A DNA stretch of 64,000 bases from Collinsella sp. An2 (GTDB lineage: Bacteria > Actinomycetota > Coriobacteriia > Coriobacteriales > Coriobacteriaceae), in NCBI RefSeq assembly GCF_002160065.1, contig NZ_NFJW01000003.1, positions 1-64,000 on the forward strand, read 5' to 3'. A program made the position numbers and the translations under genes. Below the pieces are notes generated by a model. That model did no database searches. It was not told the origin of the DNA and was given only the letters and a program-made list of their open reading frames with translations. Numbering within the stretch: the stretch's first letter is position 1; each line of letters starts with the position of its first letter. Positions 25,170 to 43,604 of this stretch are shown piece by piece.

Positions 25170-26240
<1,071 letters not shown>

Positions 26241-26680: not shown

Positions 26681-27612
26681 CTAGTTCGAAGCTGTTTCTT
26701 TCGAACGTTTCGCGTTTGCCCAGCATTGGGAATGAGGATTCCATTGCATGCCTGCCAACTCGCCGTGTAGAACAGGATTCAGCCATGACGCTACTGCGGT
26801 TTCTGATTCGGTGACATCGGCAAGTTCGGTCGGTATCTGAGCCCCTTGGGCCTCCTTCTTGTAGGAGGCCGCTTTTGTTGTCTTCCAATCCGACGGGACG
26901 CGAATCGCATTAATGCGTTCCATATGGCGCAACGTCACTTCTCGACCGATCTTCTTCAACAGCGCGTCGGCATCAACCGTATCGGTTAGTTTAGAAATGA
27001 CCAAATCAACCAGATCTTTTACGCGCGATGAGGGGATGCCGTCATAGACCTGCATCATTGCGCAGACCTTATCCGCTATTCTCTCCTCGATGGTTTGTAG
27101 CGCATAGTCATATGTGGTAAGCCCAGCGATGTCGAGTCTGCTGGCGGGGGATACCAGCACGAATTCATCCGGAGGGGTCTGGTCTACAACAAGGTCTATC
27201 CCGATGGCGCTGAGGTGCTTCGTTTTCCAAGGACGGGGATGAACTCAACTCTCATGCCTGTCCTATATTCTTGAGAAACCGGAATGGCGCACGCCCTGTA
27301 AAACCGAAAGTCAATGAAATCGTGAAGATCGATTGAGGCAAGTTCTTTTAGGTCTTCAAGAGCTTGATCGATTTCGACAGCGACGTCGACCAAATCGATG
27401 TCCTTCGTTTCTCGCGCATCGGCCCTTCTGGCAAGCTGGCTCTGGCCTCCCTTCAGAACGAATCTGGGATGAGGCTCGCTGAAAATCCTGCAGAGCAGCC
27501 TGTCTCTATAGAACCCCGCGATTTCCCTCCCGGTGTCTCTAGGGGTTCTTCGCGCCGCAGCTTTAACGGCCTGCTCCAAAGCTTGCGCACTCGAATAGCC
27601 TCGTTCGCTCAT
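26681..27612 (-). pseudogene. abiEii: AbiEii-type nucleotidyltransferase toxin, frameshifted
   Basis: AbiEii is the toxin of the type IV AbiE system (nucleotidyltransferase-like, acts in phage abortive infection). The N-terminal part (27612-27196) contains FVLKGGQSQL and the DID motif in RETKDIDL. The frame then breaks. In the next frame the protein continues naturally (KTKHLSAIGIDLVVDQ... to 26681) for about 310 residues in total. Restoring one base in the A-run read from 27226-27223 (four A; five would fit) joins the halves. It may be inactive, phase-variable or a sequencing error. Its start overlaps abiEi by 4 nt. Confidence 0.8.
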
Positions 27613-28601
27613 CCTTCCGTTCCTCCAGGTTGTTTGTCGGATGGGTTCTTTTGAACCGGGGCAGCATTCTCCGCAGCGTTGATGCCGGCGATAATGCTTG
27701 CTACGGTATTTTGTAGGGCATTTTGATTGATGAACGAGGAGACTGTATTCATCAGCTCGGAGAGGGCATTCACTGAAGAGAGTACATCAGGGTGAACGCC
27801 GCTACTCTTAACAGCCTTTGCAGCGCTAGCAACAGCCTTTTCATAGCCTGCGGGCACGGATTTGTTCACCATATGAGACAGTCTCACGGCATCCTGCAGC
27901 ACAGATGAAGACTCAAGTACTCTAACGAACTGGTCGATGGATGAGTTGAGTGCCGCCGGAATGGCGCTTTTGCCGAGCAGGTTTTCGGCAAAAGCGGTGC
28001 CGTTCTCGTACCCATACGAGCGGCAAAGCGGGCCAAGTAGAACCGCAAGGCGCTTCTCATCGAATATATGGCCGGACGAAGCCGCCTGCTCGAGATAATC
28101 ATCGATGAGGCTGGGCTCTTCCTCGAGACGCAGCAGGTCGGCTAGTGTTCGTTCTGGGGTTGTGGAGGGGATGCCGTATGTAAGGTCGATGTCCTGCTCG
28201 TCAACCGGTTCATGAAGCAGTTCGAGTTCTTTTCGAGTGCTTCGTTTACCTTCCGCTACGACGAAGCAATAGGGTGACTCGTAAAAATCTCCAAAGCCCT
28301 GGAGGCATGAGGCCGTTCGTCCGCTTGCTATAGCGTCGTACGGTTGAGAGGACAGCCGTTCGAATGCGGTTTTCTTTGGATAGAGGGAGAGCCACGCCGC
28401 CTTCGTGGCCGCATGAGCAGTTTCCACGCCTGTGGTTACACGATATGTTCCATATGCGACGGGTTCGATTCTGCCGTCATTTGCCATGCGAGCAAGTTGG
28501 TTCCTGCTGACCCCAATGTTCACGGCTTGAGCCGAAGTGAACAGCCCCCATTGCCCCGAGGCCAGTTCGTACAGCTTGTCTATGTTTCCTCGTCTGCTCA
28601 T
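27609..28601 (-). CDS. abiEi: AbiEi-type antitoxin/transcriptional regulator
   Basis: A 330-aa AbiEi family protein. The N-terminal winged-helix domain (about 1-90, with SAQAVNIGVSRNQLARMANDG) binds DNA and autorepresses the operon. The C-terminal part is the antitoxin domain plus an Ala/Ser-rich tail unlike classical members. A perfect TATAAT (28612-28607) ends 5 nt before ATG 28601 and no ribosome site precedes it, so the message may be leaderless. AT-rich inverted sequence around the -10 fits autoregulation. Confidence 0.85.
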   Translation of the reverse strand: MSRRGNIDKLYELASGQWGLFTSAQAVNIGVSRNQLARMANDGRIEPVAYGTYRVTTGVETAHAATKAAWLSLYPKKTAFERLSSQPYDAIASGRTASCLQGFGDFYESPYCFVVAEGKRSTRKELELLHEPVDEQDIDLTYGIPSTTPERTLADLLRLEEEPSLIDDYLEQAASSGHIFDEKRLAVLLGPLCRSYGYENGTAFAENLLGKSAIPAALNSSIDQFVRVLESSSVLQDAVRLSHMVNKSVPAGYEKAVASAAKAVKSSGVHPDVLSSVNALSELMNTVSSFINQNALQNTVASIIAGINAAENAAPVQKNPSDKQPGGTEG

Positions 28602-28640
28602 AGCAAGATTATACACTTATAAATATATAAACCTGCAATA
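28602..28640 (-). promoter_or_regulatory. Promoter/operator of the AbiE operon
   Basis: On the minus strand TTGCAG and TATAAT are separated by 19 bp. Between them is a palindromic AT tract (TTATA...TATAA type) that is a likely AbiEi site. The -10 lies so close to the ATG that transcription should begin at or next to the start codon. Confidence 0.5.
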
Positions 28641-29200: not shown

Positions 29201-29677
29201 CGGGATATGTAGCCCGCGCGGAAGGAGGGGTGTGGGCGGGGCGGCCGGAGCCCTCCACGGCGCCATGAGGCATGGAGTTGGAAAGCGGTGAAGTTTGATC
29301 AAGGCGAATGACCGGGATGCGTCTGGTCTCCCGTAGATGGGCACAGTATGAAGGGGTTTGGTCTGGCGGCGCTCCTAGTAGCTCCCCGTCTAACGCCGAG
29401 TTCAGATAGCAGGGCGAAATGTCTGACTGATGCGGGAAGAATATATGAGCACTAGAAAGGATCCCGGCGTCCCTCGCGGCGCCGGGATCCTTTCGTTATT
29501 GCTGCCCTCTTCGCATGCACGGTCGAGACGCACATAGATAACGCTCCCGGAATTGATACAAGTCCGCCTTGGCGGTCATGCTATAACGCGTGTAGAGACA
29601 AGCTTCTTGCCGGCGCTGAATATGCAATGCCGAGGGGGAGTTGACGTGGTTAGATCGTCAAAGGGAAAGAGAGGGGG
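29201..29677. other. Gap without a supportable gene, containing an orphan terminator
   Basis: No reading frame here looks like a protein. The only clear structure is the bidirectional terminator at 29456-29493. The stretch before it (29330-29455) could be a small RNA or the tail of a deleted gene. Confidence 0.5.
29456..29493. terminator. Orphan bidirectional terminator
   Basis: A perfect 14-bp stem AAAGGATCCCGGCG/CGCCGGGATCCTTT (29456-29469/29480-29493) is flanked by an A-run and T-run. There is no recognised gene directly upstream in either direction. Confidence 0.75.
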
Positions 29678-30133
29678 TTGCTTACCCATGCCGCTTGCCG
29701 GGCATGTGCCGCCGGTATGGCCGCGGCGCTTGTTTGTTCGTTTTGTCCAGCGCAGGCATCGGCCGATGAGATGACGAGCATCTCGGACGGTGCTCCTGGG
29801 CTGGGAGTGGCCGAGGTACAGCCTAACGTGCCTCTGCGTTTCTGCTGTCCGATGCCGCAGCATATTGCTCCGGTGAAGCGTCGGACAGCGTCTCGCATAA
29901 GCGGGTGGGTCCTGGTGAGTTCATGGGCGCGGGAGTCCATGGCGTGGGCGGTCAACGAAGGCGTCCTTGGCGGCGTATCGACGAACCAAGGTCCGCGGCC
30001 GCAACCTCAAGGCATTGTGGGTCGTCCGCAGGTGGAGAACATGGCTGTGCGCCTGCACCGTAATGTTTTTGCCGTTAGGTTTGAGGTTTTCTTAGAGTTG
30101 ACGTTGTGGTTCGGATATTCGTCGAGGAGTTGA
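29678..30133 (+). pseudogene. Remnant of an SLH-domain exported protein
   Basis: A 151-codon frame. Its start resembles a signal peptide (hydrophobic stretch ending AQASAD). Its middle is one SLH-like module: WARESMAWAVNEGVLGG, then a Pro/Gln-rich PQGIVGRPQVENMAVRLHRNVF. This matches the last SLH unit of the 21701 protein (WAQAAMGWAVDKKIITG...ARLYRDVL). The usual stop after the SLH unit is lost, and no good start codon or ribosome site exists (TTG 29678 or ATG 29717). It looks like an internally deleted, decaying gene. It ends 5 nt before the next start. Confidence 0.45.
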
Positions 30134-30138
30134 TCCTA

Positions 30139-32805
30139 TTGAAACGAATGCTTGGCATAGCCTGTGCGGGCGTCATCATGGCTCTCATGGCTGCGTTCGC
30201 GACGCCTGTATTCGCGCTGGAGGAATCCGCGGATGTTCCCGATGATGTGAGTGCCCAGATTCTGGACGCACAGCCCACCGCTGCGAATCCTGAAATCGTG
30301 GTTCGACCTCATGTAGCGAATCTTGGCTGGTTGGATTCCGTCGCTTCGGGTGAGGTGGCAGGGACCACAGGACGAGGCCTTGCCCTTGAGGCGGTGCAGA
30401 TCGATGTGGGCGGGCTGAGCGAGGGCTCTTCGCTTGAGCTCTCAGGCCATGTTTCGCAAATAGGATGGCAGGATTGGCAGACGGGTTTTGCAGGTTCAAC
30501 GGGAAGGGCGCTTGCTCTGGAGGCGCTGCGAGTCCGTTTGACCGGTCCCGATGCCGATTCCTACGACGTGTGGTATCGGGTTCACGCGAGCAATCTCGGT
30601 TGGCTTGGATGGGCATGTAACGGTGCCCCAGCTGGTTCTACGGGACTTGCCTGTCAGCTCGAGGCGGTTGAGGTCATCGTTGCCCCCAAGGGTGCGGCGG
30701 CTCCCGGCGACAGTGCGCGCCCCTTTGTCGAGGCGCTTTCATCGGATGCTGTTGCGACATCGTACTCGCAGGTCGATGAAAGCACGTCCGTATTGGTGGT
30801 GCCAGATTTCATCGAGCAGCTTGCGGCGTCAGGGGTCACCGACATTTCTGTGGTGGCGACGATGTCCTACAAGGGAGTCGAGACGCGCCGCGTCGAATCC
30901 ACATGCTCTCTTGCAGAATGTGCATCGCATGGCATGACGGTGGATATGGGCACGTACGGACCGTTCATGGTGACTGTTACCTATCGTTCGAATGGCTTGG
31001 CGCTTGGAGCGTACCAGAGCGAGGTAGGGGTGACCGCCTCGACATATAACCTTGCACCGCTTTCTGCGACCTTCCCAGTGGTGCTCTATTCGTTGTCGTA
31101 TTGGGACATTTCGAATGCGGCGGACGGAAGCACTATTCCATCCATTATCATGCTCGATCGTCCGTCTGCCTACGATTGGGACGCTCTGCCCTCCGGTATG
31201 TATGGCATGCCCTATCTTACCGATGAGGCCATTCGTACAAGTTCCAATTACGACGCCTTTGCCGACTACATCGGTGACCTGTACCGCTTGGACCCCTCGT
31301 CTCATTTCAATTTGTATCTAAACGATATTACCTGCTCATGCATACATCCGATGATCTATGCCAACGGTATCCCACAGGGCTCCTATTCCATCAGGCTGCT
31401 CTCCGATGGCTCGGCCACCTATTTGTTTACCAATGAGGCGTTTGCGTGTGCCGATCCCGAGGCGAAGCAGAATGAGCTCGTACAGAGCTGGGAGCGGGCC
31501 CGCGACGAAGCGTATGCGAGCGGTCGGGCGTCTTCGGATTACGGTTTCCATGATCATTGGGATTCTATGTATGCAGTGCTTGCGGTAGAGCCGGGATCCG
31601 AGTGGTGGATGACGCGCACCAATCTGTTTACCAGCGGTGATGACAATGCATTTGCTTCTCAGATCGCATCCAACCCAGGTGTGATCCAAAAGAACATCGC
31701 TTCGATGCTTACCGCGCTCGAGGAGCGCGGGCCCGATACGGTCGATGCGTTCGTGTCGCTCTACGACTTCAACGACGGCTATTTCGACGATGCCGCCTCA
31801 GCGGGCAAACAGGTCATGCTGCTTCTGGGAACATATGTGCAGAACGAGACCGATTTTGAAGCATATGCCGACATAACCAAGCTGTATTATGGTGATGCTT
31901 ACGAGTATTACTATAAGGGGCATCCCAATACGCCCACGGGCCTTCATCCAGAAAAGCAGCAACAGCTCGACTCTATGGGCATCACCGACGTTGACTCTTC
32001 GATTGCCGCTGAGCTTATCCTGTTCTTCAATCCAGATGTTGTACTTTCTGGATATGGGTCGAGCACGTTTAATTCGGCGACCCCTGCTATGGCGGGAGGT
32101 TTGTTCGCCATTGATAAGGCAACGGCGCTGTCGTCAGAGAGCGGCGTGGACTACTCCGGCATAGATTGGTTCGCGTCCCCGATCACCGAAGACACCGACC
32201 CCGACATCTTGGCACTTTGTCCGGAAGGTGCTACCTGCCACCTGATGGAGTTCTCGGACGAGGTCCTTGCAGGCTCCGACTTCGATATCGCGATTTTCAA
32301 CGATGGTGCTCGCTCACTTACTTATTACGCTCTGACAGACGATGGATACGTTCCGGTTCGAACGGTTGAGGATGCGAACATTGCCGTTTCCGGCTCTGCA
32401 CACGTGTCGGATATAGGTTGGCTCAAGGAATCGGATGCGTCCGTGCTGGTGGGAACAACCGGTCAAGCTCGGCAGCTCGAGGCGTTCACGCTCAATGCCC
32501 CCCAACTTGCAGGTCCTCTTACCTACGAGGCTCACGTCGAAGATATTGGATGGCAAGGACGTCGAGCTTCTGGAGAGATCGCTGGCACAACCGGGGAGGG
32601 GCGTGCCGTCGAGGCGGTATGCATTGAGCTATCCGACGAGGACGCTCGCTCTTATGACGTGTGGTATCGCGCGCACGTTTCAAACGTCGGATGGCAGCAA
32701 TGGGTATGTAACGGCCAGGTTGCGGGAACTACCGGTCAATCGCTACCCATGGAAGCGTTCCAGGTGCTGGTGCTCCCGAAGGGTTCTTCGGCGCCAGATG
32801 CCTAG
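30139..32805 (+). CDS. Secreted ChW-repeat protein with GT80 sialyltransferase-like domain
   Basis: An 888-aa exported protein: signal peptide (1-25), three ChW repeats (about 50-185), a ~500-residue central domain, and three more ChW repeats (about 755-888). The central domain aligns by motif order with GT80 bacterial sialyltransferases. FNLYLNDITCSCIHPMIYA is like the acceptor-side helix; the catalytic YDDGS is SDGS (D423); the CMP-binding KGHP is kept (H595), as is the GSS pair (S641-S642). The family normally uses CMP-sialic acid inside the cell, so export is odd. TTG 30139 follows GAGGAG by 9 nt; the frame also extends upstream. Confidence 0.7.
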   Translation: MKRMLGIACAGVIMALMAAFATPVFALEESADVPDDVSAQILDAQPTAANPEIVVRPHVANLGWLDSVASGEVAGTTGRGLALEAVQIDVGGLSEGSSLELSGHVSQIGWQDWQTGFAGSTGRALALEALRVRLTGPDADSYDVWYRVHASNLGWLGWACNGAPAGSTGLACQLEAVEVIVAPKGAAAPGDSARPFVEALSSDAVATSYSQVDESTSVLVVPDFIEQLAASGVTDISVVATMSYKGVETRRVESTCSLAECASHGMTVDMGTYGPFMVTVTYRSNGLALGAYQSEVGVTASTYNLAPLSATFPVVLYSLSYWDISNAADGSTIPSIIMLDRPSAYDWDALPSGMYGMPYLTDEAIRTSSNYDAFADYIGDLYRLDPSSHFNLYLNDITCSCIHPMIYANGIPQGSYSIRLLSDGSATYLFTNEAFACADPEAKQNELVQSWERARDEAYASGRASSDYGFHDHWDSMYAVLAVEPGSEWWMTRTNLFTSGDDNAFASQIASNPGVIQKNIASMLTALEERGPDTVDAFVSLYDFNDGYFDDAASAGKQVMLLLGTYVQNETDFEAYADITKLYYGDAYEYYYKGHPNTPTGLHPEKQQQLDSMGITDVDSSIAAELILFFNPDVVLSGYGSSTFNSATPAMAGGLFAIDKATALSSESGVDYSGIDWFASPITEDTDPDILALCPEGATCHLMEFSDEVLAGSDFDIAIFNDGARSLTYYALTDDGYVPVRTVEDANIAVSGSAHVSDIGWLKESDASVLVGTTGQARQLEAFTLNAPQLAGPLTYEAHVEDIGWQGRRASGEIAGTTGEGRAVEAVCIELSDEDARSYDVWYRAHVSNVGWQQWVCNGQVAGTTGQSLPMEAFQVLVLPKGSSAPDA

Positions 32806-33022
32806 CGCCTTGCGCGGGATGGCGTCGATGCGTCTGTCGTGATGCGTGCGTAACCGAGTGGATACGTTCGTGTGCTATAACGGCATCATCGAGAGCACGG
32901 GTCTGTTCGACAGTGATGACGTTGCTGCACAGGAGAACACTGGTTTTCCTTTATTGCGTCGGACGTTTTGCAGAGGAGAGGATTTTCACGAAGTAGCTTC
33001 ATCGGAATGTGAGGGGGATGGT

Positions 33023-35278
33023 ATGAGAAATCGAAGATGGCGAATCGTTGGGGTTCTTGCTGCCGGGTTGCTGCTGGCCGGTATGCCAACAATGGTTATG
33101 GCCGAGAGCAATCAGGGGTCTACTGTCACCGTTGATCATGACGCCTACGTCGATACGCCTCAAACTGATGAGGGAGATTCGCTCTCGGATACGTTACCCA
33201 GTGAGCTGGCCGAGACGCCTGCGGACTCCATTTCATCCGATCAAGGTGCTGTGCTAGGACCTGATGACACCCAGGCTGATGCGGATGGGCTTGAGAGCTC
33301 CCAACAGCCCGCTTCCGATTCCGGGACAGCGTCGGAGGATATCGACCTTTTGGAAACCTCGTTGCCTGCGCCGAAGCTGGCAGTTGAGGCCCATGTTTCG
33401 GAATTGGGGTGGCAGCAGGCGGTAGGCAGCGGAGATGTTGCTGGAACGACGGGGAAGGGCTTGGGTCTCGAAGCTCTCAAGGTGTCGTTCGCGAATGCTC
33501 TGCCAGATGGATTCGAGGACTCACATATCGAACTCCGTGGCCTGGTTCGCAGCGTTGGTTGGCAGGACTGGCAGGAGGGAACAGCAGGAACAACGGGCCA
33601 GTCGCACGCGTTGGAGGCGTTGCAGGTAAGGCTCTCGGGTCCCATCGCCGAGTCATTTGATATTTGGTATCGAGTCCATAGCGCCGAGTTGGGCTGGTTG
33701 GGCTGGACGTCCAATGGAGAGATGGCAGGGACTTCGGGATACAATCTCGATGTGCAGGCTGTTCAGATTCAGATATTGCCCGCAGGAAGTGCCGCGCCGG
33801 GCAGCATCGATCGGCCGTTTGTCGCGCCCGCCGTGTCCTTTAGCTCTCATATCGCTGACGTAGGATGGGTGAATGGCGTCTCGGATGATCAAGGAGCCTC
33901 TATTCTTATCGGCTCTACCGGTCAATCTCATCATCTAGAGGCCTTTACCCTTGCTCTTCCGGAATTGACGCTTGCCGGAAACGGCTCTGTTACCTATGCC
34001 GCACATGTCTCCAATATCGGTTGGCAGTCGGCAGTGGCAGACGGGGCTATCGCCGGCACAACGGGGCGCGGGCTACCCGTTGAGGCGGCAAACTTCAAGC
34101 TTACGGGCGAGCTATCAAATCGATATGATATTTGGTACCGTGCGCACCTTTCCAACATCGGGTGGCTTGGCTGGGCTTGCAACGGCCAAAATGTCGGTTC
34201 TGTAGGACTCTCGATTCCGGTCGAAGCTCTTGAGATTCGTATCGTTTCGAAAGGTTCTGCTGCGCCGGGAACGACGACAACCCCTCTTCTTGAAGTGCCT
34301 ACGCTGTCCTACGCTGGTTACTCTCAGGGTGCTTGGCAGTCTCCCGTCACTAATATGGGGGTTGCAGGAACAACGGGCGTCGGGGCGCCTCTTGAAGGTC
34401 TCACGATTGCGTACGAAGGCGTTGTGCCGGGCACCGTTTCGTATCGCGCGCACGTAAGCGATGTCGGCTGGATGAACGAGGTGAGCAACGGGGCTTCCAC
34501 CGGCGTTCCTGGCCAAGGACATCAGATCGAGGCGGTTGCCATCTCGCTAGGTGGAGAGGCTCAGAAATACTTCGACGTCTGGTATCGCGTCCATGTGGAG
34601 GGCTATGGCTGGCTTGGGTGGACCTGCAACGGCCAATATGCGGGCACCTCAAAGATCGGCTTCCAAGTCGAAGCTATTCAGATCAAGGTAACGGGTAAGG
34701 GGGCACCCGCTCCCGGTGATACCAGCTGGTCCTATTTTGAATACCTACGGTATATCGGTTGGCAAAACCCACCACAGTATCCGCAGGTCAGCAATCAGAC
34801 CGTGGTGCTTCCCAGCTACTGCACCGGAGCGTTTACCTACGTTTCGCCGTCTCAGATTCCCTATAACGCCACACGCGAAGACTGCGTCAACGCGTTCATC
34901 AGCCGTGCGTATGACTATTTAGGAACGCAGTACATCGAGCCGTGGTCTACCGCTCCGGGCGGAGCTGTCGATTGTTCTGGATTGGTGTTGCAGTGCCTGT
35001 ATGCCACGGGTATGGATATGGGCTGGTACAACCCCTACAACCATCGCTGGCTGCCGTCCCAAACCTACAACTCTATGAACTGGTATAGGAACAACACGTT
35101 CATGCCGGTCAGCGTTTCCAATATCAAGCGCGGCGACGTCGTCTATTACTCGGGCCACATCGCCATCTATCTTGGTGGAGGGCTCATTATCGACTCCTGG
35201 CCGCGCCAGGGCGTGACCATTCAGTCAATTAATAGCCGAGGCCGGGTGATTGGTGCCGCGCGTCCCTATGTCGATTAG
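33023..35278 (+). CDS. Secreted ChW-repeat protein with NlpC/P60 peptidase
   Basis: A 751-aa exported protein. After a signal peptide (1-27) and an acidic Ser/Asp/Gln-rich spacer (to about 110), nine ChW repeats occur as three triplets (GWQ... / GWQ... / YRVH...GWLGW). An NlpC/P60 domain (about 620-751) follows, with catalytic C651 in DCSGLV and H712 in GHIAIYLG. NlpC/P60 enzymes cleave peptidoglycan stem peptides. ATG 33023 is chosen from GAGGGGG 6 nt upstream and the signal peptide. It is the second of three tandem paralogues. Confidence 0.88.
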   Translation: MRNRRWRIVGVLAAGLLLAGMPTMVMAESNQGSTVTVDHDAYVDTPQTDEGDSLSDTLPSELAETPADSISSDQGAVLGPDDTQADADGLESSQQPASDSGTASEDIDLLETSLPAPKLAVEAHVSELGWQQAVGSGDVAGTTGKGLGLEALKVSFANALPDGFEDSHIELRGLVRSVGWQDWQEGTAGTTGQSHALEALQVRLSGPIAESFDIWYRVHSAELGWLGWTSNGEMAGTSGYNLDVQAVQIQILPAGSAAPGSIDRPFVAPAVSFSSHIADVGWVNGVSDDQGASILIGSTGQSHHLEAFTLALPELTLAGNGSVTYAAHVSNIGWQSAVADGAIAGTTGRGLPVEAANFKLTGELSNRYDIWYRAHLSNIGWLGWACNGQNVGSVGLSIPVEALEIRIVSKGSAAPGTTTTPLLEVPTLSYAGYSQGAWQSPVTNMGVAGTTGVGAPLEGLTIAYEGVVPGTVSYRAHVSDVGWMNEVSNGASTGVPGQGHQIEAVAISLGGEAQKYFDVWYRVHVEGYGWLGWTCNGQYAGTSKIGFQVEAIQIKVTGKGAPAPGDTSWSYFEYLRYIGWQNPPQYPQVSNQTVVLPSYCTGAFTYVSPSQIPYNATREDCVNAFISRAYDYLGTQYIEPWSTAPGGAVDCSGLVLQCLYATGMDMGWYNPYNHRWLPSQTYNSMNWYRNNTFMPVSVSNIKRGDVVYYSGHIAIYLGGGLIIDSWPRQGVTIQSINSRGRVIGAARPYVD

Positions 35279-35305
35279 GCACGAAATTTGAGGTCGTGAG
35301 AAGTA

Positions 35306-38116
35306 ATGGTGAGGAATACCCACGTTTTTCGAATGGCAACCATAGTAAGACGTATGGCGATGTGGGTATTCCTTGCCCTTGCGCTTGCTGGTGCGTGTAT
35401 GCCACGTGTGTGTTGTGGTGTCCCGGCTGAAGCCCTGACGGGAGATGTGGCGCAACAGCTTGAATCTGGTACAAATACCGTTGACGATGTCGATGGCCGA
35501 CAAGTCGATAGCGCTTCGACGCCTGACGCTTCCGGTCAGGCTGCTCCTGCGCCGGAACAAGATGAGGAGCATGGTGGGGGTGCAGAAGGCCCCGCAGCCG
35601 CTGTTCCTGAATCGTGTAGTCCTTCTACCTCCGTAGATTCTTCGGTTGCTGCGGATAATCCAAACACCGACGGGATTGCTGCCGAGACGGAGAATGGTGC
35701 TGTATCGCTTCGCTATATGGCATTTGTGCAAGGCTTGGGCTGGCAGCCTGAGATGACGTCTGGGCAGATCGCGGGCACTACAGGAAGGTCTCTTCCTGTA
35801 TATGGCCTAAGGGTATCCTTGGAGGGCGCTGATTCCTGCGACGTTTTGCTTCGGGGACACGTTCAAAACTTCGGTTGGACTACTTGGCAGTCTGATTCGC
35901 TTGGCGACGCAGGTTCCGGGCTTGCCCTCGAGGCCATCCAGGTCAAGCTCGACGATGCTTTACGTGCGAAATATCGCATATGGTATAGGGTCCATGTTTC
36001 AGATATCGGATGGATGGGCTGGACAAGCGATGGCGAACCTGCTGGTACATCTGGGAGAGGGCTTTCCATCGAGGCTCTTGAAATCCAGCTGCTACCGGTG
36101 GATGCGCCTGCTCCCGGTTCCACCGACGATGCCTATCGTGGTCCCGCCGAATCGGTCTCGCAGCAGTCTATATTCATCGATGGAACCTCCGTGCAATCTC
36201 AGGCGTTTCCAAGCGTGATGATTGGGGATGCTGGTCGCAATGTCCCTCTGCAGTCATTTTCGCTTACGGTGACGAATCCTGTTATCGACGGATTCATTTC
36301 CTATCAATCTCAGGTGTATGGAGCTGGATGGCAAACATCCTGGATTGCGGGCGAGGCGGCGAATGCTGGGGCTGCGGGCGCTCCCCTTGAAGGCGTTCGT
36401 TTTCAACTCAACGGTGGCCTCAGCTCTCGATACGAACTGTGGTATCGCGCCTATGTAATCGGTACCGGCTGGCTAGGATGGGCGAGCTCTGGCGAATCCG
36501 CAGGATCTTCCGGATTGGCTTCATATCTTGGCGCCATAGAACTCACGTTGGTTCCAAAAGGAGCGGAGCCGCCGGAACGACAGGGCGATGCCTATCTAAC
36601 GGGAGATGTCCCCATATTGTCATATCAGGCCCATAGCGCCGATGTGGGTTGGCAGTCTCCGGTGACCGACGGCATGACTGCGGGTGTTACGGGCCAGTCG
36701 CGTCAGCTCGAGGCCCTTCGAGTCGTGATGGACGGCGCGGGCTCGATTGCCAGCGATTCCGCCGCTGGTGTTCGAGTGAGTGCGCACGTTGCCGACATTG
36801 GATGGCAGGGCTGGGTTGGCTCCTCTTCGTTTGCGGGTACCACGGGCCAGGGCAAAGCCATACAAGCGATCCGAATCGAATTGACTGGAGATCTCGCTTC
36901 TACATATGACATCGTCTATAGGGTGCACAGTGCAGACTATGGTTGGCTTGGCTGGGCGTGCAATGGTGAGGCCGCTGGAACCGTTGGCCTAAATAAGCGG
37001 GCAGAGGCCATCGAGATTCGCCTGCTCCCAAAAGGTTCCAACATGCCTGCGGACGGCGCCCTGCCGCCATGCATCGAGGTTCCTGGTATCACGTGCTCGG
37101 CAAGCGTTATGGGACTCGGCTGGCAAGGCGGGGTAGGCGCCGGTGGTCTTTGCGGAACGACCGGGCAGGCCAGGGGGCTCGATGCTTTCAAGCTGTCCCT
37201 TAGCGGAAACATTCCTGGAGGAATAGCGTATGCTGCCCACGTCCAGGACTATGGCTGGCTTGATGCGGTTTCAAGCGGCGGAGTTGCTGGTTTTCCGGGG
37301 TCAGGGTTGCGCGTCGAGGCCATACGCATGCAGCTGACAGGTGAGGTTGCTACATATTTCGACATTTGGTATCGGGCGTATGTAGAAAACTACGGCTGGC
37401 TGGGATGGACAAAGAATGGAGCCGATGCCGGGACAAGCACGATCGGGTATCGGCTTGAAGCTTTCGAGGTCCGAATTACGGCAAAAGACGCGACTGCTCC
37501 CGGTTCGACCGACAGCCCCTTTGTGCACGTCCCATATTCGCCTCAATATGCCCTGCTCAACGTACCGTGTCTTCTTCAGTATCCAGAGTTGCCTACGGGA
37601 TGTGAGTCGGTTGCGCTGACGAATGTGCTGAACTATTACGGATTCGGGTTGGCAAAAACGACTATGGCTGACTCCTACATCCCACGCAGCTCCTGGGATT
37701 TTGTTACCTCATTTTGGGGTAACCCCCATAGCTCTACGGGTAATTGTTGTTCGGCTCCAGCCATCACTACGGCTGCAAATGCATTCTTAACGCTCAACCA
37801 CAGCAATTTGCGTGCATACGACATTACCGATGCCTCGCTTGAAACGATGTATGACTATGTCGCTGCAGGTCATCCAGTAATAGTCTGGTCGACCATGTAC
37901 CAGGGAAATGTTGGACGGGCGTATGCTTGGCAGCAATATAACGGCCGTTCCTACTTCACTGTTACCAATTCGCATACGATTGTGCTTCGAGGCTTTAATC
38001 GTACGAATGGTACGGTCTATATATCCGACTCTTTATCAGGCTATGTGATCATAAACGCTGCGCGGTTCTATCAGTTGTATGTTGGCAGGGGCTCTCAAGC
38101 TGTCGTGATTTGCTAA
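35306..38116 (+). CDS. Secreted ChW-repeat protein with C39-like peptidase domain
   Basis: A 936-aa exported protein: signal sequence (about 1-40), acidic spacer, about 12 ChW repeats in triplets (about 140-740), and a C-terminal C39-like cysteine peptidase domain (about 745-936). The candidate nucleophile is C766 in LPTGCESVALTNVLNYYG and the candidate His is H890 in NSHTIVLRGF. Such secreted domains differ from the C39 of bacteriocin exporters; the target is unknown. It is 27 nt after the previous gene. ATG 35306 has only a weak ribosome site. Confidence 0.82.
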   Translation: MVRNTHVFRMATIVRRMAMWVFLALALAGACMPRVCCGVPAEALTGDVAQQLESGTNTVDDVDGRQVDSASTPDASGQAAPAPEQDEEHGGGAEGPAAAVPESCSPSTSVDSSVAADNPNTDGIAAETENGAVSLRYMAFVQGLGWQPEMTSGQIAGTTGRSLPVYGLRVSLEGADSCDVLLRGHVQNFGWTTWQSDSLGDAGSGLALEAIQVKLDDALRAKYRIWYRVHVSDIGWMGWTSDGEPAGTSGRGLSIEALEIQLLPVDAPAPGSTDDAYRGPAESVSQQSIFIDGTSVQSQAFPSVMIGDAGRNVPLQSFSLTVTNPVIDGFISYQSQVYGAGWQTSWIAGEAANAGAAGAPLEGVRFQLNGGLSSRYELWYRAYVIGTGWLGWASSGESAGSSGLASYLGAIELTLVPKGAEPPERQGDAYLTGDVPILSYQAHSADVGWQSPVTDGMTAGVTGQSRQLEALRVVMDGAGSIASDSAAGVRVSAHVADIGWQGWVGSSSFAGTTGQGKAIQAIRIELTGDLASTYDIVYRVHSADYGWLGWACNGEAAGTVGLNKRAEAIEIRLLPKGSNMPADGALPPCIEVPGITCSASVMGLGWQGGVGAGGLCGTTGQARGLDAFKLSLSGNIPGGIAYAAHVQDYGWLDAVSSGGVAGFPGSGLRVEAIRMQLTGEVATYFDIWYRAYVENYGWLGWTKNGADAGTSTIGYRLEAFEVRITAKDATAPGSTDSPFVHVPYSPQYALLNVPCLLQYPELPTGCESVALTNVLNYYGFGLAKTTMADSYIPRSSWDFVTSFWGNPHSSTGNCCSAPAITTAANAFLTLNHSNLRAYDITDASLETMYDYVAAGHPVIVWSTMYQGNVGRAYAWQQYNGRSYFTVTNSHTIVLRGFNRTNGTVYISDSLSGYVIINAARFYQLYVGRGSQAVVIC

Positions 38117-38558: not shown

Positions 38559-39245
38559 CTAATGCTTGAACCACATAGCAAACAGAATGGATACGCAGGC
38601 GTTTGCCATATATGAAACGGATTTGGAGAGCGTAAGGTAGCTTTCGCCGGCGGCGCGCTCGCGCATCTCGACCTGGCACTCAGCTACCTTTGCACCCTTC
38701 TTTTTGATAAGAAAGGCAAGCGTGTCTGGTTCTGGTGCTAGATCGGTTCGTGTTGCGAACTGCTCGATCATGCGACGATTGTAGAGGCGCATGCCCGATG
38801 TCGGATCTTTGATAGTTTTGCCACACGTGAGCTTGATGATGAATGAGATGAGGTTTGAGCCTAGCATGCGCAGGGTGTGGGGCTTAGCTTTGGTCACAAA
38901 ACGGGAGCCGATGACGATGTCTGCCCCTGTCTGTTCTTGGCAACGCTCAAGATCCGCAAGATGCTCGGGGCGATGCTGGCCATCCGCGTCAAGCTGCACG
39001 ACGCTGTCGTAGCCTTTCCGCCATGCGTATTTCATGCCCGTTTGGAACCCTCCAGTAAGACCCAAGTTGACGGGCTGATCAATGATGTGGAAACCGTGGC
39101 TGTGGCAGATCTCAGAGGTCTTATCGCGAGAGCCATCGTTGACGATGATGTAGTCAAAGTCTGGGGCAACTGCAGTGAGCTCTTCGATGGTGGTAACAAT
39201 GGATGCCTCTTCGTTATAGGCAGGCACGATAACCAAGGTCGACAC
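38559..39245 (-). CDS. GT2 glycosyltransferase, DPM1-like
   Basis: A 228-aa family 2 glycosyltransferase. It has VIVPAYNEE at the start, VNDGSRDKT, and the DXD-type metal motif in QLDADGQH (about 89-96). This group transfers a sugar to a polyprenyl phosphate or directly to a glycan. GTG 39245 is used because AAGGAG is 6 nt upstream and the nearby ATG is out of frame. It is in an operon with the DUF2304 gene and perhaps the flippase upstream. Confidence 0.87.
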   Translation of the reverse strand: MSTLVIVPAYNEEASIVTTIEELTAVAPDFDYIIVNDGSRDKTSEICHSHGFHIIDQPVNLGLTGGFQTGMKYAWRKGYDSVVQLDADGQHRPEHLADLERCQEQTGADIVIGSRFVTKAKPHTLRMLGSNLISFIIKLTCGKTIKDPTSGMRLYNRRMIEQFATRTDLAPEPDTLAFLIKKKGAKVAECQVEMRERAAGESYLTLSKSVSYMANACVSILFAMWFKH

Positions 39246-39291: not shown

Positions 39292-40557
39292 TTAATTGCG
39301 GGCATCAGTTGCGGAGCGCTGATGGCGGAGTATGAACACCATTGAGAGTGCGACGGCGATGGCACAGCCGCCGATCACCGAGAAGTTGATGCCGTTCATT
39401 CCCAAATTGGTGGTGAGGGGAATAGCAAGCGCGAGTGCCGCACCGAGTGCTAAGAGGTTGCAGGCGAGCATCGCTGGAGTCTTGCGGAGGATGACGAGCA
39501 CATCGTTGGTATAGAAGAGTATGCCGACGCTGCCGGTTGCCAACAAGACAAAGGGGAACAGGTAAGTATAGGGGGCGATTGAAGTTCCGAATACGAGCTG
39601 AAGCCCCCAGTCTCCAACTGCGCTAAGAATGGCAATAAAAACAAGGATGACGATGAGAATCAAAAACAAAATGCGGAAGAACTCTTTGGCAAATGAATTG
39701 CGCCCCTCCTGATGAAGCTTTTTTGCGAGCGTGCCGATAAGGGGGCTATACAGATAGGTCGCAGATACTTGAATGAGAACGGCGGGTGTGGCTACGCTAG
39801 CGTAGATGCCAAGGGCTTCACTGCCATAGGTTACACCGAAGTACTGGCGGACGATCGAGACGATGCCGTTTGCGCAGAGGCTGGCAATCATGGCGAGCAA
39901 ACACGATTTTCCAAGCTTTTTGATATGCGACACGTTGAACGAGGGGGTGATATCACCGAAGAGACGGGCGTGTGGAATGTCATAGAACACCGTCACGGCA
40001 ATACAGGCTGCCGCCATTCCCAAGATACCCGCAACGAGATTATCCAAGACTGCGAGGGGGATTGAGAACCCCACGAGCGAAGCGACCCCTCGCATAAGTT
40101 GTGATTTGCCAATGAAGTCCATGCGTTCGCCGACCTGATCAATTCCGTATAGCACGTCGGAGAACACTTCGTCAGATTTGAAGAGAAGGTATGCAATCGA
40201 GGCGACCAAAAACTCCGCATTCGAGCTGCAGGCGAGCGGTAGATATATTGCAGACCAGATAAGGCCGAGGACTATCGTTACCAGGCGGAATCCCACGTAG
40301 TCACCGTGGGAGAACTCACCGGAAAGGTCAGAGACCTGAAAGGTTCTGATCTTATAGAGGCCAATCGAGGCAAAGATGATGCCATTTGCCATAGCAAAGG
40401 CCAGGGCGCCCGAGTTCTCGTACCCTGAGGATAGGCGTACGACCAGGACGCTTGTCAGCCATTGGCAACCGAGGTAGAACAGGCACCCGAGTGCATTCCA
40501 GATTGTGTTAGCGCGCAGAGATAGGGGGGCGACGCTTTGAGGGGTTTTCGTATTCAT
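39292..40557 (-). CDS. Polysaccharide flippase (Wzx/MATE-like)
   Basis: A 421-aa polytopic membrane protein with about 12 hydrophobic segments. Its pattern is like O-antigen/teichoic-acid flippases, with an N-terminal segment typical of polysaccharide biosynthesis proteins. It probably moves lipid-linked oligosaccharide across the membrane. It is 46 nt ahead of the GT2/DUF2304 pair on the same strand. No clear ribosome site precedes ATG 40557. Confidence 0.8.
   Translation of the reverse strand: MNTKTPQSVAPLSLRANTIWNALGCLFYLGCQWLTSVLVVRLSSGYENSGALAFAMANGIIFASIGLYKIRTFQVSDLSGEFSHGDYVGFRLVTIVLGLIWSAIYLPLACSSNAEFLVASIAYLLFKSDEVFSDVLYGIDQVGERMDFIGKSQLMRGVASLVGFSIPLAVLDNLVAGILGMAAACIAVTVFYDIPHARLFGDITPSFNVSHIKKLGKSCLLAMIASLCANGIVSIVRQYFGVTYGSEALGIYASVATPAVLIQVSATYLYSPLIGTLAKKLHQEGRNSFAKEFFRILFLILIVILVFIAILSAVGDWGLQLVFGTSIAPYTYLFPFVLLATGSVGILFYTNDVLVILRKTPAMLACNLLALGAALALAIPLTTNLGMNGINFSVIGGCAIAVALSMVFILRHQRSATDARN

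Positions 40558-42569: not shown

Positions 42570-43604
<1,035 letters not shown>

What the first reader, a model, noticed from the sequence alone, without database searches (positions are those of the whole stretch)
30139..32805. Exported ChW-repeat protein with a GT80 sialyltransferase-like core
Between two ChW triplets lies a ~500-residue domain. Its motifs follow GT80 enzymes such as Pasteurella PmST1 in order: the FNLYLN..HPMIYA helix, SDGS (for YDDGS), KGHP, and a GSS pair. The catalytic Asp, CMP-binding His and Ser pair all seem kept. GT80 enzymes are normally cytoplasmic and need CMP-sialic acid. Finding one behind a signal peptide with cell-wall-type repeats suggests either an extracellular transferase using an unusual donor or a repurposed fold.
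Basis: partly seen in the sequence, partly recalled or inferred. Interest (0 to 1): 0.78.

Follow-up and report, generated by a model that had tools for sequence, protein, structure and literature searches.

The report
Wall-anchored, exported sialyltransferase-like enzyme
Some gut bacteria of the Coriobacteriia appear to export and anchor to their cell wall an enzyme built like bacterial sialyltransferases, with its catalytic and CMP-binding residues intact, although nearly all of these bacteria lack recognisable genes for making the activated sialic acid such enzymes normally use.

Summary
ORF 30139-32805 encodes a signal peptide, three ChW repeats, a ~540-residue core and three more ChW repeats. 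The core is a family found so far only in Coriobacteriia (21 of 398 genomes, 13 of 153 genera). It is always exported and is attached to ChW repeats, choline-binding-like repeats or ricin-like repeats, or to no repeats.

An AlphaFold2 model (pLDDT 90.6) shows an Ig-like domain followed by a GT-B fold. Its best PDB matches are the Photobacterium alpha2,6-sialyltransferases (GT80) that carry the same N-terminal Ig-like domain. K309, P312 and E338 also match. D, K, H, P and E are invariant in 17 homologues; only the first D of the DDG motif is lost (S/T). The family does not reach the Pfam cut-offs for GT80 or GT38, so it is a new, related family, not a GT80 member by profile.

The own genome, like 20 of 21 carriers, lacks recognisable NeuA and NeuB. 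Donor, acceptor and activity are unknown. Most likely it is an extracellular CMP-dependent sialyl- (or related) transferase or trans-sialidase working on scavenged substrates. Rivals are modification of the cell's own wall glycan, or a repurposed binding protein.

The parts
30124..30129 (+). ribosome-binding-like GAGGAG upstream of the TTG start (30139); an alternative GTG start lies at 30106
   Evidence: sequence; homologues L007-L009 begin at the same ..LLKR.. position
30139..30216 (+). signal peptide (LKRMLGIACAGVIMALMAAFATPVFA), inferred
   Evidence: sequence; one hydrophobic segment; homologues have equivalent leaders. No signal-peptide predictor was available
30310..30675 (+). three ChW repeats (30310-30408, 30448-30546, 30583-30675)
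   Evidence: PF07538
30754..31038 (+). Ig-like beta-sandwich domain, boundaries approximate
   Evidence: strands in model m8eb9b62f6a3a; the Foldseek alignment to 4r83 and 2z4t spans 468-495 columns, i.e. both domains
31039..32373 (+). GT-B sialyltransferase-like domain plus a short C-terminal beta segment
   Evidence: models; Foldseek; hhalign; weak PF11477/PF07388
31405..31407 (+). codon of D423 (SDG), equivalent of PmST1 catalytic base D141
   Evidence: invariant in 17 of 17; alignment; role in PMC2169525
31915..31926 (+). K593-G594-H595-P596, equivalent of PmST1 K309-P312 (HP motif, cytosine and phosphate binding)
   Evidence: invariant in 17 of 17; roles in PMC5517516 and PMC2169525
32011..32013 (+). 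E625, equivalent of PmST1 E338 (ribose binding)
   Evidence: invariant in 17 of 17; PMC5517516
32059..32064 (+). S641-S642, equivalent of PmST1 S355-S356 (phosphate binding)
   Evidence: S641: 14 S, 2 N, 1 T; S642: 16 S, 1 T
32401..32766 (+). three ChW repeats (32401-32490, 32533-32634, 32674-32766)
   Evidence: PF07538
32846..35278 (+). neighbouring exported ChW protein with NlpC/P60 domain
35306..38116 (+). neighbouring exported ChW protein with C39-like peptidase domain
   Evidence: these three genes hold all 24 ChW repeats of the genome
38160..40557 (-). DUF2304 membrane protein, polyprenyl-phosphate-sugar-synthase-like protein (38559-39245) and an 11-TM protein (39292-40557); relatives near the homologue in several other genomes

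Best explanation
The protein is secreted, held in the wall by six ChW repeats, and carries outside the cell an Ig-like domain plus a GT-B enzyme related to bacterial sialyltransferases. It binds CMP or a CMP-activated acid sugar in the cleft between two Rossmann domains: K593, P596 and E625 for cytidine, H595 and S641/S642 for the phosphate. D423 acts as base on the acceptor. Since the cell seems unable to make CMP-sialic acid and the enzyme sits outside, it most likely works on material from outside: either forward transfer from scavenged CMP-sialic acid, or CMP-assisted removal and re-transfer of sialic acid (trans-sialidase-type activity), as known for PmST1 and Pd2,6ST. Shown: export signal and wall repeats (by sequence), fold (by model), conservation of the active-site set, absence of NeuA/NeuB-type genes. 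Inferred: CMP binding, activity, donor, acceptor, direction.
For: Both AlphaFold2 models hit only the Ig-bearing GT80 enzymes 4r83 and 2z4t at E about 1e-10 to 1e-13; the next GT-B proteins are at 1e-5 to 1e-4. hhalign 37.4 against a shuffle maximum of 28.0, with D, HP, E and SS in register. D141, G142, K309, G310, H311, P312 and E338 equivalents are all invariant although only 45 of 555 columns are. GT38 and GT80 models ring on this gene in whole-genome searches. Published roles: PMC2169525, PMC5517516, PMC4202792. Reverse sialylation, trans-sialidase and sialidase activity in PmST1 and Pd2,6ST: PMC10795189. No NeuA/KdsB-type, NeuB or GH33 sialidase in the own genome.
Against: No profile reaches its curated cut-off. 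Foldseek did not list Ig-less GT80 structures (PmST1, 4r9v) among the top 50, so the GT80-specific structural signal rests partly on the shared Ig-like plus GT-B architecture. Full-length TM-scores are only about 0.44-0.53, with rmsd 10-12 A. The first acid of D/E-D/E-G is S/T, the S336 equivalent is A/P and W270 has no equivalent. No extracellular pool of CMP-sialic acid is known to me in the gut, and gonococcal Lst, once thought surface-exposed, is now placed in the cytoplasm (PMC8092323).
Confidence: 0.45

Rival explanations
1. It modifies the cell's own wall polysaccharide or teichoic acid outside the membrane, using another CMP- or CDP-linked or lipid-linked donor; sialic acid is not involved.
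For: Several divergent homologues sit in surface-glycan loci. G178: next to AMP-binding and MBOAT genes (dlt-like) and CDP-glycerol glycerophosphotransferase, with a LicD-containing gene about 10 kb away. G188: two LicD genes and a LicCA-like gene. Senegalimassilia: LicCA-like fusion and DUF6541. Window: rml genes, GT2s, DUF6541, polyprenyl-P-sugar synthase. An 11-TM protein recurs near it in four other carriers.
Against: Other carriers (L005, L010, L012: runs of ChW wall-protein genes; L079: penicillin-binding protein) lack such neighbours in the stretch examined. ChW or choline-binding proteins may cluster with wall genes for anchoring reasons alone. No extracytoplasmic nucleotide donor is known in such cells. 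The donor pocket residues are those of CMP-sugar enzymes, and TagF structures match far worse (E 2.7e-3).
Confidence: 0.22
2. A repurposed GT-B fold: a wall-displayed binding protein (for sialoglycans, CMP or wall glycan) without transferase activity.
For: Extracellular location, binding repeats of three kinds, lack of a donor source in 20 of 21 carriers, loss of the first D and of W270.
Against: The base D, HP motif and ribose-binding E are invariant in 17 homologues down to 31% identity, which a mere binder would not need.
Confidence: 0.23
3. The similarity to sialyltransferases is only the general GT-B fold plus chance motifs; the real function is an unrelated glycosyl or nucleotide-sugar activity.
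For: Profile scores are below cut-off; UDP-GlcNAc 2-epimerases and UGTs also match the model.
Against: The gap of about six orders of magnitude between GT80 and other GT-B hits, the shuffle test, and two independent sialyltransferase models landing on the same gene genome-wide.
Confidence: 0.1

Closest known systems
Photobacterium alpha2,6-sialyltransferases Pd2,6ST (4r83) and JT-ISH-224 (2z4t), GT80
   Same: N-terminal Ig-like domain plus GT-B; DG, KGHP, E and SS residues in register; best structural match and collinear profile alignment
   Different: about 12-14% identity; DDG is SDG/TDG; no W270 equivalent; the family here carries wall-binding repeats in a Gram-positive class; below the PF11477 cut-off
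Pasteurella PmST1, GT80
   Same: D141, K309, H311, P312, E338, S355/S356 equivalents kept
   Different: no Ig-like domain; not among the top 50 structural hits
Bacterial polysialyltransferases, GT38 (PF07388; Mannheimia MhPST)
   Same: HP motif and C-terminal Rossmann region; PF07388 gives the best sialyltransferase E-value among homologues (4.5e-4)
   Different: below cut-off; no Ig-like domain known to me; cytoplasmic capsule enzymes
Gonococcal Lst, GT52 (sialyltransferase dependent on scavenged host CMP-Neu5Ac)
   Same: a sialyltransferase in a cell that cannot make CMP-Neu5Ac (PMC11078009)
   Different: now placed in the cytoplasm (PMC8092323); no wall repeats
ChW-repeat surface proteins
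   Same: same repeat, same genomic cluster
   Different: the neighbours carry peptidase or hydrolase domains (NlpC/P60, C39; amidase, GH25, YkuD in relatives)

Membership tests
GT80 (PF11477) | profile score over the curated cut-off (25 bits) | tested here: not met
   best 17.7 bits, own gene 11.1; 3 of 17 homologues match, best E 0.0055
GT80 (PF11477) | two-Rossmann GT-B fold | tested here: met
   model pLDDT 90.6; Foldseek 4r83 1.0e-11, 2z4t 1.4e-10
GT80 (PF11477) | D/E-D/E-G motif with the catalytic base D | tested here: inconclusive
   base D and G invariant; the first acid is S (15) or T (2)
GT80 (PF11477) | HP motif, K309, ribose-binding E338, phosphate-binding S355/S356 | tested here: met
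   K, H, P, E 17 of 17; Ser pair S/T/N
[quoted passage not shown]
   needs an enzyme assay
GT38 polysialyltransferases (PF07388) | profile score over the curated cut-off (23.3 bits) | tested here: not met
   best 20.4 bits; own gene 14.3
ChW-repeat proteins (PF07538) | ChW repeats over the cut-off | tested here: met
   six repeats, 228 bits in all
Exported wall protein | signal peptide and wall-binding modules | tested here: inconclusive
   sequence features clear and conserved; no signal-peptide predictor or localisation experiment
Endogenous sialylation pathway | CMP-sialic acid synthetase and NeuB in the same genome | tested here: not met
   own PF02348 hits are a MobA-like transferase and a hexapeptide-repeat (GlmU-like) enzyme, the NeuB hit is DAHP synthase; high-scoring NeuA and NeuB in one carrier only (G186)

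The most novel reading that the evidence does not exclude
A previously undescribed family of dedicated extracellular, wall-anchored sialyl- (or other nonulosonosyl-) transferases or CMP-dependent trans-sialidases in Gram-positive-type gut bacteria that cannot make CMP-sialic acid: they would re-arrange host or dietary sialoglycans, or sialylate their own surface, with scavenged substrates.
Probability: 0.35. Interest if true: 0.85.

Novelty: new variant of a known kind. Interest (0 to 1): 0.63.

Why it matters
Nucleotide-sugar transferases normally work inside the cell or Golgi, where their donor is. A conserved, exported and wall-anchored one with an intact active site raises a testable question: what does a CMP-sugar enzyme do outside a cell that makes no CMP-sialic acid? 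If active, it would be a route by which common gut bacteria (Collinsella aerofaciens among them) change sialic acids without a recognisable GH33 sialidase. It also points to a family that has no Pfam or NCBIfam model.

Tried and rejected
Single-sequence searches (phmmer, hmmscan) gave no significant relative for the core, nor did family-profile hmmsearch against the PDB sequences. Sec7, DUF5075 and Prefoldin hits were single or few-member weak matches and were rejected. Plasmids, phages and viral contigs hold no relative; the viral structure library gave nothing below E 1e-3, so a phage or plasmid origin finds no support. NeuA- and NeuB-like hits in the own genome were followed up and rejected as a MobA-like transferase, a GlmU-like enzyme and DAHP synthase. 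Gonococcal Lst as a precedent for a surface sialyltransferase was considered and dropped after reading PMC8092323.

Full report
WHAT IS THERE. The + strand ORF runs from a TTG at 30139, preceded by GAGGAG at 30124-30129, to the stop at 32805. It encodes a hydrophobic leader ending ..FATPVFA, three ChW repeats, a core of about 540 residues and three more ChW repeats. Pfam names only the ChW repeats with significance. The core alone gives a sub-threshold match to the GT38 polysialyltransferase model over the KGHP-GSS stretch.

FAMILY. A search of 60 relatives found three homologues at 63-66% identity; genome contigs gave ten loci, all Coriobacteriia, including Collinsella, Slackia and Senegalimassilia. 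A profile over 398 Coriobacteriia genomes found 21 carriers in 13 of 153 genera. An Actinomycetota-wide sample of 396 genomes found only the own genome and G005, and family-wide searches added one partial member. The distribution is patchy: most genomes sampled lack it. The scan of genome contigs used two peptides specific to close relatives (HWDSM and EWWM types), so distant relatives in other phyla are not excluded. The core is constant while the tails change: ChW repeats here and in Collinsella, choline-binding-like repeats in Senegalimassilia and G188, ricin-like repeats in another family, no repeats in G178 and G378 (tail types other than ChW judged by eye). The complete members begin with a signal-peptide-like leader. 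The core is therefore the working part and export is constant.

FOLD. With 11 sequences AlphaFold2 gave pLDDT 83.8; with 17 more diverse sequences 90.6, pTM 0.86, and all five models at 88 or above. Both models put the two Photobacterium GT80 enzymes crystallised with their N-terminal Ig-like domain first (4r83, 2z4t; E 1e-10 to 1e-13, alignments of 468-512 columns), well ahead of other GT-B proteins. The rmsd is large (10-13 A) and TM-scores are about 0.38-0.53, as expected if domains sit at different angles. GT80 structures without the Ig domain (PmST1, 4r9v) are not in the lists, so the structural case for GT80 in particular leans on the two-domain architecture.

SEQUENCE. I aligned four GT80 sequences as held in the PDB (two of the query texts were written from memory and their used parts matched the PDB chains). 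hhalign of the family against them aligns the GT-B part with SDG on DDG, LGT on TGTTTW, YYYKGHP on LFFKGHP, AAE on SFE and GYGSST on GIASSL. The score of 37.4 compares with mean 17.2, sd 2.8, maximum 28.0 for 199 shuffles. In 17 homologues (down to 31% identity to the window protein) the equivalents of PmST1 D141, G142, K309, G310, H311, P312 and E338 are invariant, while only 45 of 555 columns are; the alignment itself favours conserved columns, so this is support and not a strict test. The literature gives these residues the roles of base, CMP-phosphate and leaving-group binding, cytosine recognition and ribose binding (PMC2169525; PMC5517516; PMC4202792). The lost first Asp of DDG points to the protein core in PmST1 (PMC2169525). 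Searched over whole genomes in six frames, the GT80 model rings on this gene family in 7 of 8 ringing genomes and the GT38 model in 6 of 7, always below the cut-off.

DONOR PROBLEM. NeuA, KdsB and similar CMP-sugar synthetases share PF02348. In the own genome its best hits are a MobA-like nucleotidyltransferase and a GlmU-like enzyme; the NeuB hit is DAHP synthase; there is no GH33-type (BNR_2) sialidase. Among the 21 carriers only G186 (Senegalimassilia) has high-scoring NeuA and NeuB. So the enzyme, outside the cell, cannot draw on an endogenous CMP-sialic acid pool. GT80 enzymes can also run backwards: PmST1 and Pd2,6ST show sialidase and trans-sialidase activity mainly by reverse sialylation (PMC10795189).

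SURROUNDINGS. The three adjacent genes 30106-38116 hold every ChW repeat found in the genome (24 of 24); the other two carry NlpC/P60 and C39-like peptidase domains. Next comes a surface-glycan locus: DUF2304 protein, polyprenyl-phosphate-sugar-synthase-like GT, an 11-TM protein without Pfam match, GT2 enzymes, dTDP-rhamnose genes, DUF6541, an acyltransferase. Relatives of the 11-TM protein recur near the homologue in four other carriers, and LicD, LicCA-like, dlt-like or TagF genes lie near it in divergent ones, but several carriers have other neighbours. This is the main support for the rival that the acceptor is the cell's own wall glycan.

VERDICT. An exported, wall-anchored GT-B protein of the bacterial sialyltransferase superfamily with intact active-site residues is well supported (about 0.9 for fold and kinship, my estimate). 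That it is an active CMP-dependent transferase or trans-sialidase is likely but unshown. It is not a GT80 member by profile. No paper with both GT80 and Collinsella was found in the library, and no Pfam or NCBIfam model names the core.

Noticed in passing
window 30106-38116: All 24 ChW repeats found in this genome lie in three adjacent genes, a self-contained set of exported proteins (GT-B, NlpC/P60, C39-like).
   Followed up: yes
window 39292-40557 (-): A 421-aa protein with about 11 TM segments, no Pfam or NCBIfam match, with relatives (28-70% identity) near the homologue in L006, L011, L014 and L068; possibly a flippase, polymerase or GT-C of wall glycan.
   Followed up: partly
L011:2559-4325 and L068:1-1230: Fusion of a winged-helix domain, a MobA/LicC-like nucleotidyltransferase and a choline-kinase-like domain beside choline-binding-like repeat proteins in Coriobacteriia, suggesting phosphocholine-decorated wall polymers.
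   Followed up: partly
L066 (G178): The anchor-less homologue lies between AMP-binding/MBOAT genes (dlt-like) and a CDP-glycerol glycerophosphotransferase gene.
   Followed up: partly
window 26681-28616 (-): AbiEi-like gene followed by two short ORFs (26681-27160 with weak AbiEii similarity, and 27196-27612) that look like one AbiEii gene split in two.
   Followed up: no
window 25221-26240 and 42582-43604: Two RmlB-like dehydratase genes about 16 kb apart on either side of the ChW cluster.
   Followed up: no
window 29455-29494: A 17-pair, GC-rich hairpin with a T-containing tail, in the gap upstream of the ChW cluster; terminator-like.
   Followed up: no
L079, L082, L081, L080, L067, L078 (families f5 and f2): Homologues with long C-terminal ricin-lectin-like repeat arrays (ORFs up to ~1380 aa), judged by eye.
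   Followed up: no
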